64,000 nucleotides of DNA, taken from assembly GCA_963921825.1 (NCBI GenBank), contig OY997588.1, forward strand, positions 5,904,001-5,968,000, written 5' to 3'. The notes under the pieces are model-generated. The model saw only the letters and a list, made by a program, of their open reading frames with translations. It was not told where the DNA came from and made no database searches. How positions within the stretch are numbered: position 1 is the first letter of the stretch; each line of letters starts with the position of its first letter. The position numbers and the translations under genes were made by a program. This DNA is from Erodium maritimum (lineage: Eukaryota; Streptophyta; Magnoliopsida; Geraniales; Geraniaceae). Positions 9,281 through 37,300 of this stretch are shown here, one piece after another.

Positions 9281-11794
9281 TATATACCATAAAATTAGGA
9301 GACACGGTGATTATTTTTTTAGCCTGTTCTCTAGACGCAGCCTGTTCTCTGCTAGGGTTTTCTAGGGTGCAGGTTTTGCGAGAAACAGCTGCCTTCCATG
9401 GATTTTTCGACGACGGTGACGAGTGGAGAGGGCGGTGTGGCAGACGACGTCCACTGGGGGCCGCGTCTGGTGGAATCCGGTGAGCAGGGAGGTTCTCCGA
9501 TGGTGGGGGACGTCCTTGGTCACGGGTGGGTGGAGCCGGAGGATGAAACGGAGCGGGGCTCTGAGCCTTCGGCGGAGGAGACGCCGGTGGAGGAGATGAC
9601 GACGGTGGAGGAGGTCACGCCGGTGATATCAGCTGGGCCTTGGTCGGGGAGGGTGTCGAGCCTCCCGGAGATGCAGTTCTCGGCTGCACCGGTGGCGGAG
9701 GATGGCTGGGTGGTGGGGGGTCGGCTTCGATCCGGACCGCCCCCCCTCCGTCGTACGGTGGCGAGGGGTCCCAGGCCGCGTCGGTTGGGCGTTGGGGTGG
9801 GCCGGAGCGGGGTGGGGCAGGGTGGCACTGCTGTCGCGGAGGGGGTATTGCATGGCACGGGAGACGATCCGGTCGTGGTTTCGTCGGACTCTGTGTCCGG
9901 GACGGATGCGAGGACGGGTTCGCCGGACTCGGCATCGGAGCTGGAGGAGAGGGTGGGGCCGGAGGAGGTGCCTTGGCGGCGACGGCAGGGGAAGGAACCT
10001 ATGACGGCTAGGGTTTCGCCACCTCGGGCCAGGGAGGAGGCGGGTTTGGGCCGAGGACTTATGCCCGATGCTCGCAGGGCTGGTCTCCCGAGGCCAGGGC
10101 TGGGCCCTCATCCGGGCTGGACCCGGGGAGGCGTGGGAGACGTGGCGGCTTGGGCCGCCCGTTATGGAGCGGGTCGAGGTGCACATGGTGGACCGGGGGC
10201 GGATCTGAGGCCTGGGGCGGGTCGGGTGCCTGAATCGGCTTTCAGGGGTGTCCCATCAGTGGGCACTGGAGAGGAGAAGGGGGAACAGGTGGAGCTGGAC
10301 CGCCGGATGGGGGCTATGCGGATCAGGGAAGTCGTGGTCCCAGTTCAGGAGGTCACGGGCAGGGGGAACCTCTACAGGTATGCGCTGGCAGCCAAGCACC
10401 TGACCTCCAAGACTGTCTTGTGGAAGCCAGTGGTGGCACGCATGGAAGACGTCTGGGGTATGAAGGTGGAGGCGAAACCATTGGAAGGTGGTCTAGTGGC
10501 CTTTTACTTCAGAACGGCTAAGGAAAGGGAAAGGGTTCTGCTGGGGGAACCCTGGTCGTTCAGGGACTCATTGGTCCTGTTTACCGACTTGAGGGCGCAC
10601 ATGCAGGTTAGTGATCTGCAGTTCCACCACTTCTCAGTTTGGGCGCGGGTGTCCAATCTTCCAATTGGGGCCTGGACGAGGGATGTGGGTTTTAGAGTTG
10701 GCAACGCATTGGACGTTTGTCAAGGCGTAGATGTTGATAGGGATAGGCTCTGTTGGGGGGACTTTATGAAGGTTCGGATCAGGGCAGATATCAGGATTCC
10801 CCTGCAGAGTCAGCTTTGGTTCCGCCTCTCTGTCTCGCAGGTACGGACACGTCTGCTAATTTCTTATGAGTTTTTACCTGAACATTGCTTCGGTTGCTGT
10901 TGTGCGGGTCACCTCTTTCCGGTCTGTCCGGTTGTGGGCAGCTCGAGGGGTGTAACCCTGAGAGCACATGGGGACCCGCGGTCGGCCTTGGAGAAGGCGA
11001 AGCGCGGGAAGGCCATCCCGGGAACGAACTGGACCTACTTAGGTGGGTCGGACAGAGGTGTAGGGGGGTCGGACAGAGGTGTAGGGGGGTCGGACAGAGG
11101 TGTCCGAGCTAAAGATACCACACGAACACCAGGGCGGAAGGAGGGGCCGGGGTGGTGGGGGCGCAGTCAAGCAGGGGTTGAGGAGGATCGGACCGCCTGG
11201 ATGGCTAGGGATGTGGCACCGTCACTATCAGGGAATAAGAGACTAGTGCGGGAGGAGGAGCCGGATGAGGAAGAGGACTCGGCGGCGTCCAATGAGGTTT
11301 CACCTACAGCGGCGGGGGGCTCCAAGCACCCTCGCCTCCAGGAATGAGTCCGACAGGGGCCAGGGAGGGGTTGGTCGGTTGTACCTTCTCCCTGGTGTAT
11401 AGGTGGCATTGGTACCACCAACAGCTGACATGTTACTACCCTACCACTTCGGGGTCAGCATTCCCGCGTTCAGGAGCCCTACCACTATCAAGCAAGGGAG
11501 GACGACGCACGCTGACATACCGGGGGAGTAATTGGTCCACCGTTGTTTACTTATCCTCTGGTCTGCTCGATCGGTTCCTTTTGGTTGGGGTATACTGTAT
11601 CGGTATCTCCGGATGCTAACGCAGTCCCAAATCCCCGACCGCAATTATTCTACAGAGCACATTTACTCTTTATGCACTTGTCTTTCCAATTATTCTAGTT
11701 TGGTTTATGTACGGTGACTTCCCTTTGTGGGGTCCCCGAGTTACTTTATATTAATGAATATCTCAATTTCCTTTCAAAAAAAAATATATACCAT
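9281..11794 (+). mobile_element. ORF1-only LINE-like retroelement with target-site duplication
   Basis: The element is bounded by TATATACCAT at 9281-9290 and again at 11785-11794, directly after an A-run that closes its 3' end. That is the expected footprint of target-primed reverse transcription. Inside are a short leader with the 12-nt direct repeat AGCCTGTTCTCT, one long ORF (9398-11347) and about 440 nt of 3' non-coding DNA. There is no room for, and no trace of, an endonuclease or reverse transcriptase, so it must have moved with enzymes supplied in trans. The 3' end lies about 270 bp upstream of the SLD start codon. The perfect repeats and open ORF suggest a fairly young insertion. Confidence 0.7.
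9398..11347 (+). CDS. Gag-like ORF1 protein, DUF4283 plus CCHC zinc knuckle
   Basis: An intact 649-residue frame starting at ATG. The first 320 residues are low-complexity, acidic and then Gly/Arg/Pro-rich. About residues 326-440 match the DUF4283 pattern of plant L1 ORF1 proteins. Residues 497-510 form a C-x2-C-x4-H-x4-C knuckle (CFGCCCAGHLFPVC). After the knuckle, a 21-nt unit repeated three times at about 11042-11103 encodes GGSDRGV three times. The tail is acidic and then basic. In the family this protein binds the element RNA. GC content is far above the surrounding DNA. A host role after domestication cannot be excluded, but the retroposon footprint favours an element protein. Confidence 0.75.
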   Translation: MDFSTTVTSGEGGVADDVHWGPRLVESGEQGGSPMVGDVLGHGWVEPEDETERGSEPSAEETPVEEMTTVEEVTPVISAGPWSGRVSSLPEMQFSAAPVAEDGWVVGGRLRSGPPPLRRTVARGPRPRRLGVGVGRSGVGQGGTAVAEGVLHGTGDDPVVVSSDSVSGTDARTGSPDSASELEERVGPEEVPWRRRQGKEPMTARVSPPRAREEAGLGRGLMPDARRAGLPRPGLGPHPGWTRGGVGDVAAWAARYGAGRGAHGGPGADLRPGAGRVPESAFRGVPSVGTGEEKGEQVELDRRMGAMRIREVVVPVQEVTGRGNLYRYALAAKHLTSKTVLWKPVVARMEDVWGMKVEAKPLEGGLVAFYFRTAKERERVLLGEPWSFRDSLVLFTDLRAHMQVSDLQFHHFSVWARVSNLPIGAWTRDVGFRVGNALDVCQGVDVDRDRLCWGDFMKVRIRADIRIPLQSQLWFRLSVSQVRTRLLISYEFLPEHCFGCCCAGHLFPVCPVVGSSRGVTLRAHGDPRSALEKAKRGKAIPGTNWTYLGGSDRGVGGSDRGVGGSDRGVRAKDTTRTPGRKEGPGWWGRSQAGVEEDRTAWMARDVAPSLSGNKRLVREEEPDEEEDSAASNEVSPTAAGGSKHPRLQE

Positions 11795-12055: not shown

Positions 12056-13399
12056 ATGGCGGAGCCAAGGAAGCACATTTCGCAGCAAGATCTCGCCACC
12101 CACAACAAGCCCGGAGATCTGTGGATCTCCATCCAGGGCAAGGTCTACGACGTCTCCGATTGGGCCAGGGACCACCCCGGCGGAGCCACCCCTCTCCTCA
12201 ATCTCGCCGGCAAGGACGTCACCGATGCCTTCGTCGCCTACCATCCCGCCTCCGCTTGGCAGCACCTCGGCAAGTTCTTCAATGGCTACTACCTCGAAGA
12301 CTACTCCGTCTCCGAGGTCTCCAAGGACTACCGACAGCTCCTCTCCCACTTCACCAAACTGGGTCTCTTCGAGAAGAAAGGCCACGGCGTCTTCTTCACC
12401 TTCTGCCTCATGACGGCGCTCCTCGCCGCCAGCGTCTACGGCGTTTTGTGCTCGGACAGCACTTGGGTCCACCTGCTCTCCGGTGGGTTAATGGGTTGTC
12501 TCTGGATCCAGAGCGGGTGGATCGGGCACGATTCGGGTCACTACCAGGTGATGTCCAGCCGGAGATTCAACAGATTGGCGCAGGTCCTCACCGGAAACTG
12601 CCTCGCCGGCATCAGCATCGCGTGGTGGAAGTGGAACCACAACGCCCACCACATTGCCGTCAACAGCCTCGAGTTCGATCCAGATCTACAGCACATGCCC
12701 TTCTTCGCCGTCTCCTCCAAGTTCTTCAATTCCTTAACCTCTTACTTCTACGACCGCAAAATGAGCTTCGATTCCGCCACCAGGTTCCTCGTCAGCTACC
12801 AGCACCTCTCCTTCTACCCCGTCATGTGCCTCGCTCGCCTCAATCTCTTCGCCCAATCCTTCATCCTCCTCCTCTCCAATCGAATCGTCCACAACCGAGG
12901 TCAGGAGATTCTGGGCATCTTAATCTTCTGGATCTGGTACCCTCTCCTAGTCTCCTACTTACCCAATTCCGCAGAGAGGGCCATGTTCGTCCTCGCGAGC
13001 TTCTCCGTCACCGGGATCCAGCACGTCCAGTTCTGCCTGAACCACTTCTCCGCCAGGGTCTACGTCGGCTCGCCGGCCGGCAACGACTGGTTCGAGAAGC
13101 AGACCAACGGAACCGTCAACATCTCCTGCCTCCCGTGGATGGATTGGTTCCACGGCGGCCTCCAGTTCCAGATCGAGCACCACCTCTTCCCGAGGCTTCC
13201 CCGAGGCCAGCTCAGGACCGTAGCTCCGTTCGTCAAGGAGCTCTGTAAGAAGCACAACCTCCCCTACGACATCGGGACCTTCTACGAGGTCAACCTCATG
13301 ACCCTGAGGACTCTCCGAGCCACGGCTCTGCAAGCTCGCGATCTCTCCAACCCAGTTCCGAAGAATCTGCTCTGGGAAGCTGTCAACACCCATGGATGA
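12056..13399 (+). CDS. SLD: Sphingolipid delta(8)-desaturase (cytochrome b5 fusion)
   Basis: Inserts the delta-8 double bond into the long-chain base of plant sphingolipids at the ER. The 447-residue single-exon protein matches the usual length of about 449. The N-terminal cytochrome b5 domain carries HPGG at residues 40-43. The three histidine boxes are HDSGH (158-162), HNAHH (195-199) and QIEHH (372-376). Replacement of the first His of box 3 by Gln is the hallmark of front-end desaturases. Hydrophobic segments lie between the boxes. The start ATG follows a pyrimidine-rich leader and gives the full b5 domain. Third codon positions are strongly C-rich, so long shadow frames occur on both strands. 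The gene looks intact. Similar front-end fatty-acyl desaturases exist, but plant proteins of this type are mostly SLDs. Confidence 0.95.
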   Translation: MAEPRKHISQQDLATHNKPGDLWISIQGKVYDVSDWARDHPGGATPLLNLAGKDVTDAFVAYHPASAWQHLGKFFNGYYLEDYSVSEVSKDYRQLLSHFTKLGLFEKKGHGVFFTFCLMTALLAASVYGVLCSDSTWVHLLSGGLMGCLWIQSGWIGHDSGHYQVMSSRRFNRLAQVLTGNCLAGISIAWWKWNHNAHHIAVNSLEFDPDLQHMPFFAVSSKFFNSLTSYFYDRKMSFDSATRFLVSYQHLSFYPVMCLARLNLFAQSFILLLSNRIVHNRGQEILGILIFWIWYPLLVSYLPNSAERAMFVLASFSVTGIQHVQFCLNHFSARVYVGSPAGNDWFEKQTNGTVNISCLPWMDWFHGGLQFQIEHHLFPRLPRGQLRTVAPFVKELCKKHNLPYDIGTFYEVNLMTLRTLRATALQARDLSNPVPKNLLWEAVNTHG

Positions 13400-34300: not shown

Positions 34301-37300
34301 TTGTGTTGGTTTTGTAGATGGGTTCATTTCTCCTTAAGCAAGCTTAATTTCTGGTGTTTTCTTGTGCTTTGTTTAAGGGTTTAATTTGTGGTTTTGAGAT
34401 GGTTATGCATTGTTCAAGTAACAGTTGTTGCTTTTTTTTATCCTTCAGTTTTCTGGATATGCACAAAATAAGGTATGTGGTTCAAGTTTTTCTTTTTTCT
34501 ACTTGAATCTCCTTTACTGTTTCCAAAATGATCTGGTGCTACTGGATTTTTTGCTGGTCAATGTTTCAGCTCTCTTTGAACTGTTTAGGATGAACAATGC
34601 TCAACTTTTTCCTAAGTTGTTGTTACATAGTTCTGTAAGGATTTTGGACTTTGTTTTGCCTCTATAAATTATGCTGTTCAACAGACTGAGTCTGAGGTAT
34701 TGTTTTGATTAAGATTTTGTATGTCTTGATTATTATGGGTTATATGTTATTAATATTTTTTAATTATTCCTTTTTAACATATAAGAATATGTTGGTTTAA
34801 AGGTTTATTGGATATGGATACTGAATCAGAGGCTTGTAGTAATGAATCTCCTGATCAAGTTGCTGATTCTCCAATGCCAGTCAACTCTGAGGATTATTCT
34901 ATGGATACTCAGTTAAATGCTTTCAAGAGACAGAAGATAGGTGGAGGTGAAAGCATGAATGAAACAGAACATCTCTATCATTACTTCGATCAAGAAGCCG
35001 CGCAAAAGCTGCTTGTCCGTATGATCATTATGCGACAGTATCCCTTGTCATTTGTTGATCTTCACGGATTTCGAGAGTTAATGACTAGTCTTCAACCATT
35101 ATTCAAAATGCCATGTCGAGACACTGTTGAAAGTGATATCTTGAACATGTACAAGTATGAGAAGGATACTACAATGATGATGTTGGAGGGAAATGAAAGT
35201 AGGATTTCATTGACTATGGATATGTGGATTGCAAGCGATCCAACAAGGGATTTTATGGCTATTACGGCACATTACATTGATGACAATTGGACGATGCAAA
35301 GAAGAATGATCAGGTATGTGTTTCAACAATTTTTGCATCATAATTTAGCTCATATATCATATTGTCTAATTGTTGACTCTTGCATCATTGTTTAGTTCAC
35401 ATGCTATGTTTTCTAATTGTTAATTTTAGGGATAATTGCAAAAATAAATATCCTGCGATATTCACTTTTTGTAATGTGTAGCCCTCTTCTTTGGTAATTG
35501 TAAAAAAGTGCTCTGGACTTGTCTTTTTGTGGCACTTTATATATATTTGTTTCAAAATGACGATTTGTCCCTTTAAAATTAAAATTCAAAAGCAATAAAT
35601 TCATATTTTTCATATCCCTTAAATTTCTTGTTTTTGTTATGAAGTACAAAGAGTAAGAAAATTAAGGGATATGAAATTTGGATTTTTTTTAACTGGTTAC
35701 TTCTCAAATCTAAACTATAAGGATAAAATCGTCATTTTATACAAGACTAGTTCAAGGTATTTTTTTGCAATTATCAATGTTGAGGGTTACAAGTTGCAAA
35801 AAGTGAATACCTCATGTTACTTTTTTGTAAATATCCCTTTATTTTATGATCGTAGTTCAATTCACATACAGTGTTTCGTAATTTCGTATTTTTTATACTA
35901 AAACGTGATATGTTTAGGTTCATACACGTGCCCTGTCCGCATACTTCTGACGATCTTGCTAGTGTCTTGCATGAGTGTATGCTAGATTGTAACTTGGATG
36001 AAAAACTATCTGCATTGACAGTAACTGATTGTGCAACCAATAATGACATTGTTAAAAGTTTGTTGGGAAAGCTTCCTCCTACCTCACTTCTATTAGATGG
36101 GGAGCTATTGCATGTACGTTCTTTTGCTCATATTCTGAATTCAATCGCACAAGATGGTTTATCTATCATTGAACAAGTTATTGATAAAGTAAGAGACATA
36201 GTTGGTTATTGGAGTGCGAGTTCCGAAAGAGTGAAGAAATTTAAGGAAATATCACATCAATTGCAAATTGAGTGTACAAAAAAATTATCTCTTGATTACA
36301 CGACGCAATGGAGCTCTACTTACTCAATGTTGATGGTCGCCTTGAAGTATAAGAACGTGTTTATGCAATTGAAAATTCCGGAGGAGGTTTTTAAGTGTCC
36401 AACAAACGAGGAGTGGGATATAGTTGAAGAAGTATGTGAGAAACTGTGCATATTTTATGAGGTGAATGAGGCGTTATCCGGTAGCAAGTATCCTATTACA
36501 AACATGTTGTTCACTCACATGTGCAGGATTAGATTTGCATTGATGTCATGGCAACCATCTTCATCTGAAATGATAAGATCCATGACATTGAATATGACTC
36601 AAAAGTTTGAAGAGTATTGGCATAGCATACATGGAGTTATGAAAATTGGTATTGTTTTGGATCCAAGATATAAGATGAAGTTTTTGGAATACTACTCTCC
36701 TAAACTTTATGGCAATGAAGCTTCTTTAGAGGTTGACAAAGTCAGAACACTTTGTTCTAAGCTCGTTAAAGAGTACCAATCAAGAGATGCAAAGGCATTA
36801 AGGCAAGAGCGTAATGGGATGCAAAGTTGTGATGAAGATGATGTCTTTGCTGAATTTGATTCATATGTGAGTGAAGTAAACGAGGAGTTGTTAAAGTCAG
36901 AGTTGGATCAATATTTGGAAGTGAAACTCATACCAAGAAGCGTGGATCTTGACATTTTGGTTTACTGGAAAACTGATGGGCTCAAGTGGCCTACTTTACA
37001 AAAAATAGCTAGAGATATTCTAGCTATTCCAATTTCAACTGTAGTATCTAAATCTGCAGTTAGTTATGATGATAGAATGGTCACCCCGCATTGGAGTGGA
37101 CTTCATTCCAACACTTTGGAGGCACTTATGTGTGTTAAAAGTTGGCTATGGAATGAAGTACAAGGTAAATCAAACATTTCATGTGATCTACTTTTTTAAA
37201 ATTACTATCAAAAGCTAATGTATCTTACTTGTTTTTCTTATTCAATCAATTGAAGAAGAAGAAGAAGAAGATGAAGAAGAAGAAGAAGAAGAAGAAGAAG

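What the first reader, a model, noticed from the sequence alone, without database searches (positions are those of the whole stretch)
9281..11794. ORF1-only LINE-like element with an intact 649-codon gag-like gene
The element has a 10-bp target-site duplication (TATATACCAT), a 3' A-run and one open ORF with DUF4283 and a CCHC knuckle, but no endonuclease or reverse transcriptase. Mammals have half-L1 elements of this kind; I know of no named plant counterpart. An open ORF1 in an element that must borrow its polymerase suggests the protein is kept because it binds the element's own RNA.
Basis: partly seen in the sequence, partly recalled or inferred. Interest (0 to 1): 0.8.

Follow-up and report, generated by a model that had tools for sequence, protein, structure and literature searches.

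The report
Plant gag-only retroposon family, under selection
This is one copy of a large plant family of jumping genes that carry an RNA-packaging-type gene but, in every copy read, no copying enzyme, and the gene shows the marks of natural selection even though the enzyme must be borrowed from another element.

Summary
In detail: a 2,494-bp element (9291-11784) between perfect TATATACCAT repeats, ending in nine A, with one 649-codon ORF (DUF4283, CCHC motif). It is not a unique deletion. The same genome (763 Mb, plant by gene content, unnamed) holds 34 further near-full-length and many partial copies. 29 of 40 loci have accepted target duplications of 9-18 bp. An ORF-end word occurs 512 times, a tail word 1,582 times (reversed controls 0). 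No RT or endonuclease was seen upstream of the tail in 108 copies (often short stretches). At 21 of 22 divergent loci the ORF is seen to run into the same tail; the last stretch starts inside it. ORF1 is under purifying selection: dN/dS about 0.06 around DUF4283 between subfamilies; for DUF4283+CCHC 0.06 on internal and 0.32 on terminal branches (p 1e-19); wrong frames 0.9 or more. Simplest reading: the protein acts in cis, RT comes in trans. Relatives that lack DUF4283 but share the tail show mostly unselected residual frames. The RT donor was not found; RNA binding is inferred. It works like mammalian HAL1 without being one. My paper searches listed no plant counterpart.

The parts
9281..9290 (.). 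5' target-site duplication TATATACCAT
9291..9320 (+). 5' filler; its first 23 nt are identical to an unlinked place, C8:25354571-25354593, with no element in the 401 bp read there
9321..9397 (+). 5' leader; family 5' end GACGCAGCC at 9334; in this copy a 12-bp repeat AGCCTGTTCTCT at 9321 and 9339
9398..11347 (+). ORF1, 649 codons, open; aa 1-300 GC-rich and only weakly constrained
10442..10780 (+). DUF4283 (PF14111), aa 349-461, in the strongly constrained core
10886..10927 (+). CCHC motif C-x2-C-x4-H-x4-C; Pfam zf-CCHC_4 below cut-off
11040..11103 (+). three 21-bp tandem repeats in the C-terminal part of ORF1; one to three units in the copies translated
11348..11775 (+). 3' tail shared with other subfamilies and with DUF4283-less relatives; its word CAAGGGAGGACGACGCACGCTGAC (11493-11516) occurs 1,582 times in the genome
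11776..11784 (+). 3' A-run (9 A)
11785..11794 (.). 3' target-site duplication TATATACCAT

Best explanation
It is a non-autonomous plant retroposon with an L1-type DUF4283 ORF1 that has lived without endonuclease/RT since before its present subfamilies split. Its RNA encodes a DUF4283-CCHC protein that most likely coats the RNA it was made from (cis action); a separate LINE supplies nick and reverse transcription in trans, recognising the shared 3' tail and A-run and inserting by target-primed reverse transcription. Shown: multicopy structure without RT in the copies read, TSD and A-run, one ORF-tail junction, purifying selection on ORF1 during spread, relaxed constraint and stops on terminal branches. 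Inferred: RNA binding, cis preference, tail recognition, identity of the donor.
For: Copies. TSD. No RT seen and one junction. Of the 12 hits on the first 39.3 Mb of C1, 9 have the tail word at the expected distance, L117 was read directly, and the other two show the ORF-end word only. Selection: aa 301-461 omega 0.055, 0.057, 0.063; wrong frames over the whole ORF 1.28 and 1.39; omega-like 0.73 for variants seen once, 0.41 for two, 0.22 and 0.24 for more; DUF4283+CCHC internal N 36, stop 0, S 192; terminal N 189, stop 19, S 199; Fisher p 1.2e-19. Open frames: 37 of the 150 hits have an open frame of 600 aa or more and no stop in the match (counted by eye); 9 of the 37 sequences have 600 codons or more from an ATG (L089 and L090 among them had been chosen for being open). 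Internal contrast: residual frames of relatives without DUF4283 have pN/pS 0.97, 1.12, 0.96 and 0.63 in four groups.
Against: The donor LINE was not found: nine loci beside long-frame LINE-type RT hits show no match to the tail, and the seven with a readable A-run end otherwise (..GCTGATCAAAA and variants). Relatives without DUF4283 spread as well. Of these, group A has pN/pS 0.63 (other frames 0.75 and 1.27), and groups B and D are compared at low divergence, where selection would hardly show. Terminal-branch omega of the long type is 0.50 overall, not 1. The structure prediction was useless (mean pLDDT 36.5), so RNA binding rests on domain names only. Most copies could not be read; searches scored 40 or 150 of thousands of candidates. 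No data on transcription or translation.
Confidence: 0.72

Rival explanations
1. Recurrent by-products of an autonomous LINE: a full element with this ORF1 and this tail exists, and ORF2 is removed at a fixed junction, for example by splicing before integration. Selection on ORF1 would then act in the autonomous parent.
For: It would explain one junction at divergent loci and strong ORF1 constraint. Only part of the copies could be read.
Against: No RT-bearing copy among 108 tail-bearing copies read, nor among those of the 12 hits on the first 39.3 Mb of C1 whose downstream side could be judged (10 of 12). The nine loci beside LINE RTs lack the tail.
Confidence: 0.13
2. Independent internal deletions of a LINE, each unable to move: a graveyard rather than a family.
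For: No RT in the window copy.
Against: Separate TSDs, the same junction at divergent loci, constraint on internal branches.
Confidence: 0.03
3. Retrocopies of a host DUF4283-CCHC gene: selection acts on a host source gene and the copies are processed pseudogenes.
For: mRNA-like structure with A-run and TSD; relaxed constraint on terminal branches.
Against: Divergent subfamilies with synonymous differences near saturation; the tail also follows other upstream frames, unlike one gene's mRNA.
Confidence: 0.08

Closest known systems
HAL1 (half-L1) of mammals
   Same: ORF1 only, poly(A), TSD, depends on RT/EN of full LINEs (PMC5322556, PMC5753468: passages read).
   Different: ORF1 here is DUF4283 plus CCHC, not mammalian L1 ORF1p (composition of the latter recalled); plant host; donor LINE not found; relatives that also lack DUF4283. 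The primary HAL1 paper (Bao and Jurka 2010) is not held and was not read.
Plant L1-type LINEs with a DUF4283 ORF1, such as Celine of poplar
   Same: ORF1 with DUF4283, TSD, poly(A) (PMC11288735: passages read).
   Different: Celine is 6.1 kb with ORF2 (EN, RT); here ORF2 is absent and the 3' end differs from the seven LINE 3' ends readable in this genome.
LINE ORF1-derived EKA genes of powdery mildew
   Same: Multicopy ORF1-derived sequences outside full LINEs (PMC4641428: passages read).
   Different: Those are proposed fungal effectors, truncated before the nucleic-acid-binding region, with signs of positive selection; here that region is the most constrained part and copies carry TSDs.
SINEs
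   Same: Non-autonomous, borrowed RT, shared 3' tail; the relatives without DUF4283 resemble them in this (general knowledge).
   Different: 2.4 kb with an ORF under selection; Pol III promoter not tested.

Membership tests
HAL1 (mammalian half-L1) | encodes ORF1 but neither EN nor RT | tested here: met
HAL1 (mammalian half-L1) | poly(A) end and target-site duplications | tested here: met
   (29 of 40 loci)
HAL1 (mammalian half-L1) | ORF1 homologous to mammalian L1 ORF1p | tested here: not met
   Pfam finds only DUF4283 and a weak zf-CCHC_4; what mammalian ORF1p looks like is recalled
HAL1 (mammalian half-L1) | derived from a known autonomous LINE with which it shares its ends | tested here: inconclusive
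   nine LINE loci compared, none shares the tail
Autonomous plant L1-type LINE | ORF1 with DUF4283 | tested here: met
   Celine passage
Autonomous plant L1-type LINE | ORF2 with endonuclease and RT | tested here: not met
   absent between the TSDs in the window and not seen in the copies read
Non-autonomous LTR retrotransposon (gag-only) | LTRs at both ends | tested here: not met
   no long terminal direct repeat; the ends are filler/leader and A-run
SINE | short and without coding capacity | tested here: not met
   2.4 kb with a selected ORF
SINE | Pol III promoter | not tested
   no scan run

The most novel reading that the evidence does not exclude
A two-tier parasite chain: an ORF1-only retroposon whose own DUF4283-CCHC protein has been kept by selection in cis over a span in which synonymous sites nearly saturate, exploiting a LINE with an unrelated 3' end, and itself exploited by satellites that carry the same 437-bp tail but have lost DUF4283.
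Probability: 0.3. Interest if true: 0.78.

Novelty: new variant of a known kind. Interest (0 to 1): 0.63.

Why it matters
Elements that keep a gag-like gene but no polymerase are a natural experiment on what ORF1 proteins are for. Here the same genome holds long copies in which the domain is under strong constraint and relatives with the same tail in which it is gone, so the cis role of a plant LINE ORF1 protein becomes directly testable. It would also be a plant counterpart, convergent in organisation, to mammalian half-L1s.

Tried and rejected
Unique-deletion reading: rejected. LTR or SINE identity: rejected (length, selected ORF). RT donor among nine loci chosen by long-frame RVT_1 hits whose roughly 770-bp span I took for LINE type: no tail match; L096 has no A-run found and L097 looks like other sequence; donor left open. 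Autonomous copies among the 72 exact 3'-end matches: 51 lie outside one search's list, I read upstream of 43 of these (8 not read), no RT seen; two searches gave positions only. Single-sequence AlphaFold of aa 301-521: mean pLDDT 36.5, not used. PDB sequence search: one hit at E 0.41, taken as chance. RNAalifold of 23 tails: 92 pairs, 8 with double changes, covariation term only -2.4, so no claim for a recognised hairpin. Filler copied from the local target: not supported, 5 of 19 fillers share 10 nt or more with their own flank against 28% with other flanks. First base A of the TSD in 26 of 29 is inflated by the ambiguity between A-run and TSD and is not used. The indel counts come from a rough counter and are not used.

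Literature: nine searches of the held PMC library (one search found no paper). No listed title or abstract beginning names a plant ORF1-only LINE; two searches listed 20 of 91 and 20 of 47 papers. Only passages of four papers were read.

Rows dropped: one search uses 29 of the 40 loci. Of the other 11, L032 (14 bp) and L037 (13 bp) had simple A/T-rich matches that I rejected; L005, L029, L031 and L038 had only 7-8 bp; L006, L014, L015, L036 and L039 had none, the coordinates of L006, L014 and L015 being spoilt by joining (one search shows 15- and 14-bp repeats for L006 and L014). leave out the truncated or split copies L029, L036, L038, L039 and L040. L043, L045 and L047 are second fetches of L023, L030 and L016.

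Full report
What is there. The window copy is bounded by TATATACCAT at 9281-9290 and 11785-11794, ends in nine A, and holds one ATG ORF of 649 codons, 9398-11347. Pfam gives DUF4283 at E 6.5e-14 (aa 349-461) and a sub-threshold zf-CCHC_4; the C-x2-C-x4-H-x4-C motif is at 10886-10927. One search lists no long terminal repeats. GC is 54-70% in the 500-bp windows from 9500 to 11499. An ORF with cytochrome b5 and fatty-acid desaturase domains starts at 12056, about 260 bp past the 3' duplication. I infer a plant host from gene content; the species is unknown.

It is a family. A DNA search of the same genome scored 40 of 4,111 first-look candidates and listed 42 matches: the window copy, 39 further copies, one second piece and one 239-bp fragment. 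35 rows, the window copy included, are near full length (query start at or before 120, end beyond 2500), at 84-100% identity. A protein search with the DUF4283-CCHC region scored 150 of 13,017 candidates, all 150 at 84% identity or more. Exact words in the genome: 3' end 72, ORF end 512, tail middle 1,582, each 0 in the reversed control. In 29 of the 40 loci L001-L040 I accepted a target duplication (9-18 bp, median 14). By eye about 27 of these 29 begin at the same place (GACGCAGCC or a close variant; not L023, L016 doubtful), most after roughly 5-60 bp of AT-rich filler that lies inside the TSD.

No polymerase seen. I looked upstream of the tail in 108 copies: 39 of L001-L040 (L039 lacks the tail), five from the 3'-end word (L041, L042, L044, L046, L048), L049-L068, L071-L088, L089, L090, L100-L119 and L120-L123. 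None shows endonuclease or RT. This was judged by BLASTN against the element and by eye in translation; Pfam was run on a few only. Many stretches are short (201-501 bp), so they show the junction and not the whole element; some (L059/L069, L067/L070, L074, L078, L121, L123) are interrupted, truncated or unplaced. A small set complete by position: of the 12 hits on the first 39.3 Mb of C1, 9 have the tail word at the expected distance, L117 was read directly (its tail match ends after about 280 bp), and the other two show the ORF-end word only.

One junction, several subfamilies. L089, L090 and 20 loci taken from the more divergent hits (84-88% identity) were compared: in 21 of 22 the end of ORF1 is seen to run into the same tail; L108's stretch starts inside the tail, and L112's tail is interrupted by other sequence after about 106 bp (match identities 78-89%). 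The simplest reading is one RT-less ancestor before the subfamilies parted.

Selection. Nei-Gojobori: L001/L089 dN 0.265, dS 1.20; L001/L090 0.263 and 0.99; L089/L090 0.212 and 1.02. For aa 301-461 omega is 0.055, 0.057 and 0.063; for aa 462-512 it is 0.02 in two pairs, undefined in the third because synonymous sites are saturated; the N-terminal 300 aa give 0.41-0.62. Wrong frames over the whole ORF give 1.28 and 1.39. L089 and L090 had been chosen for long open frames. Among 35 near-full copies, variants seen once have omega-like 0.73, seen twice 0.41, more often 0.22-0.24; wrong frames 0.92-2.11. On a FastTree tree with parsimony, DUF4283 plus CCHC: internal branches N 36, stop 0, S 192 (omega 0.06); terminal branches N 189, stop 19, S 199 (0.32), Fisher p 1.2e-19. 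C-terminal part 0.23 and 0.47, p 9e-4. Whole ORF 0.30 and 0.50, p 2.5e-9. The N-terminal part does not differ (0.57 and 0.65, p 0.22). Control frames 1.0-1.7. The pattern is that of a gene needed by copies that went on to reproduce, with constraint relaxed after insertion.

Relatives without DUF4283. Many tail-bearing loci have another frame upstream that ends in the same AAGG(S/F)KHPRLQE. DUF4283 is absent by Pfam in L046 and by reading in L048. For the other types only about 400 bp were read; there the absence is inferred from N-terminal motifs of ORF1 (such as WRRxxGK) lying within about 100 codons of the ORF end, and in L049 from a BLASTN match to the N-terminal part directly followed by one to the C-terminus. 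L046 and L048 show near-identical flanking repeats by eye. In the last 130 or so codons pN/pS in the ORF frame is 0.97 (group B, 7 copies; other frames 0.74, 0.61), 1.12 (D, 4; 0.76, 0.77), 0.96 (C, 3; 0.90, 0.97) and 0.63 (A, 3; 0.75, 1.27). So these frames look mostly unselected; group A may be an exception, and B and D differ too little for a strong statement. These relatives spread without their own DUF4283: they may use ORF1 protein from long copies, or need none.

Donor. Nine loci beside RVT_1 hits of LINE-like span, chosen for open frames of 982 aa or more, have no tail match. The seven with a readable A-run end in ..GCTGATCAAAA or variants, and most of these are alike over the last 80-150 bp. 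The donor must be another LINE or one that accepts a different tail.

Mechanism and rivals. Best reading: ORF1 protein packages the RNA that encodes it, and RT comes in trans. The main rival is a hidden autonomous parent with a fixed ORF2 removal, for example by splicing. No RT in 108 copies would put such parents at about 3% or less of the copies if the sample were random (rule of three, my estimate); it was not random, and the genome could not be scanned completely.

Known relatives. HAL1 in mammals is the closest in organisation. Plant LINEs such as Celine carry DUF4283 in ORF1 together with ORF2. Nine searches of the held library listed no plant ORF1-only family (capped listings in 45 and 46); Repbase and most subscription journals were not available.

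Noticed in passing
9291-9320: The first 23 nt of the 5' filler are identical to an unlinked place on another chromosome (C8:25354571) with no element in the 401 bp read: a patchwork 5' junction, perhaps a template switch.
   Followed up: partly
L002-L040, 5' ends: Most copies with an accepted TSD carry roughly 5-60 bp of AT-rich filler between the TSD and the common 5' end (L003 has none); 19 fillers tested are no more like their own flank than like other flanks.
   Followed up: partly
L091-L096, L099: LINEs of this genome share a conserved 80-150 bp 3' end (..AAAATTGCTGATCAAAA), different from the tail of the RT-less family.
   Followed up: no
11493-11516: The tail's 24-mer is found 1,582 times, three times more often than the ORF-end word, so the tail is carried by many copies with other or diverged upstream parts.
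   Followed up: partly
L061, L063, L066, L077, L086, L088: Further tail-bearing types with other GC-rich frames that end in AAGG..HPRLQE; not classified.
   Followed up: no
35871-37199: A 442-codon ORF whose translation looks to me like a hAT-type transposase relative (recalled resemblance, no search run).
   Followed up: no
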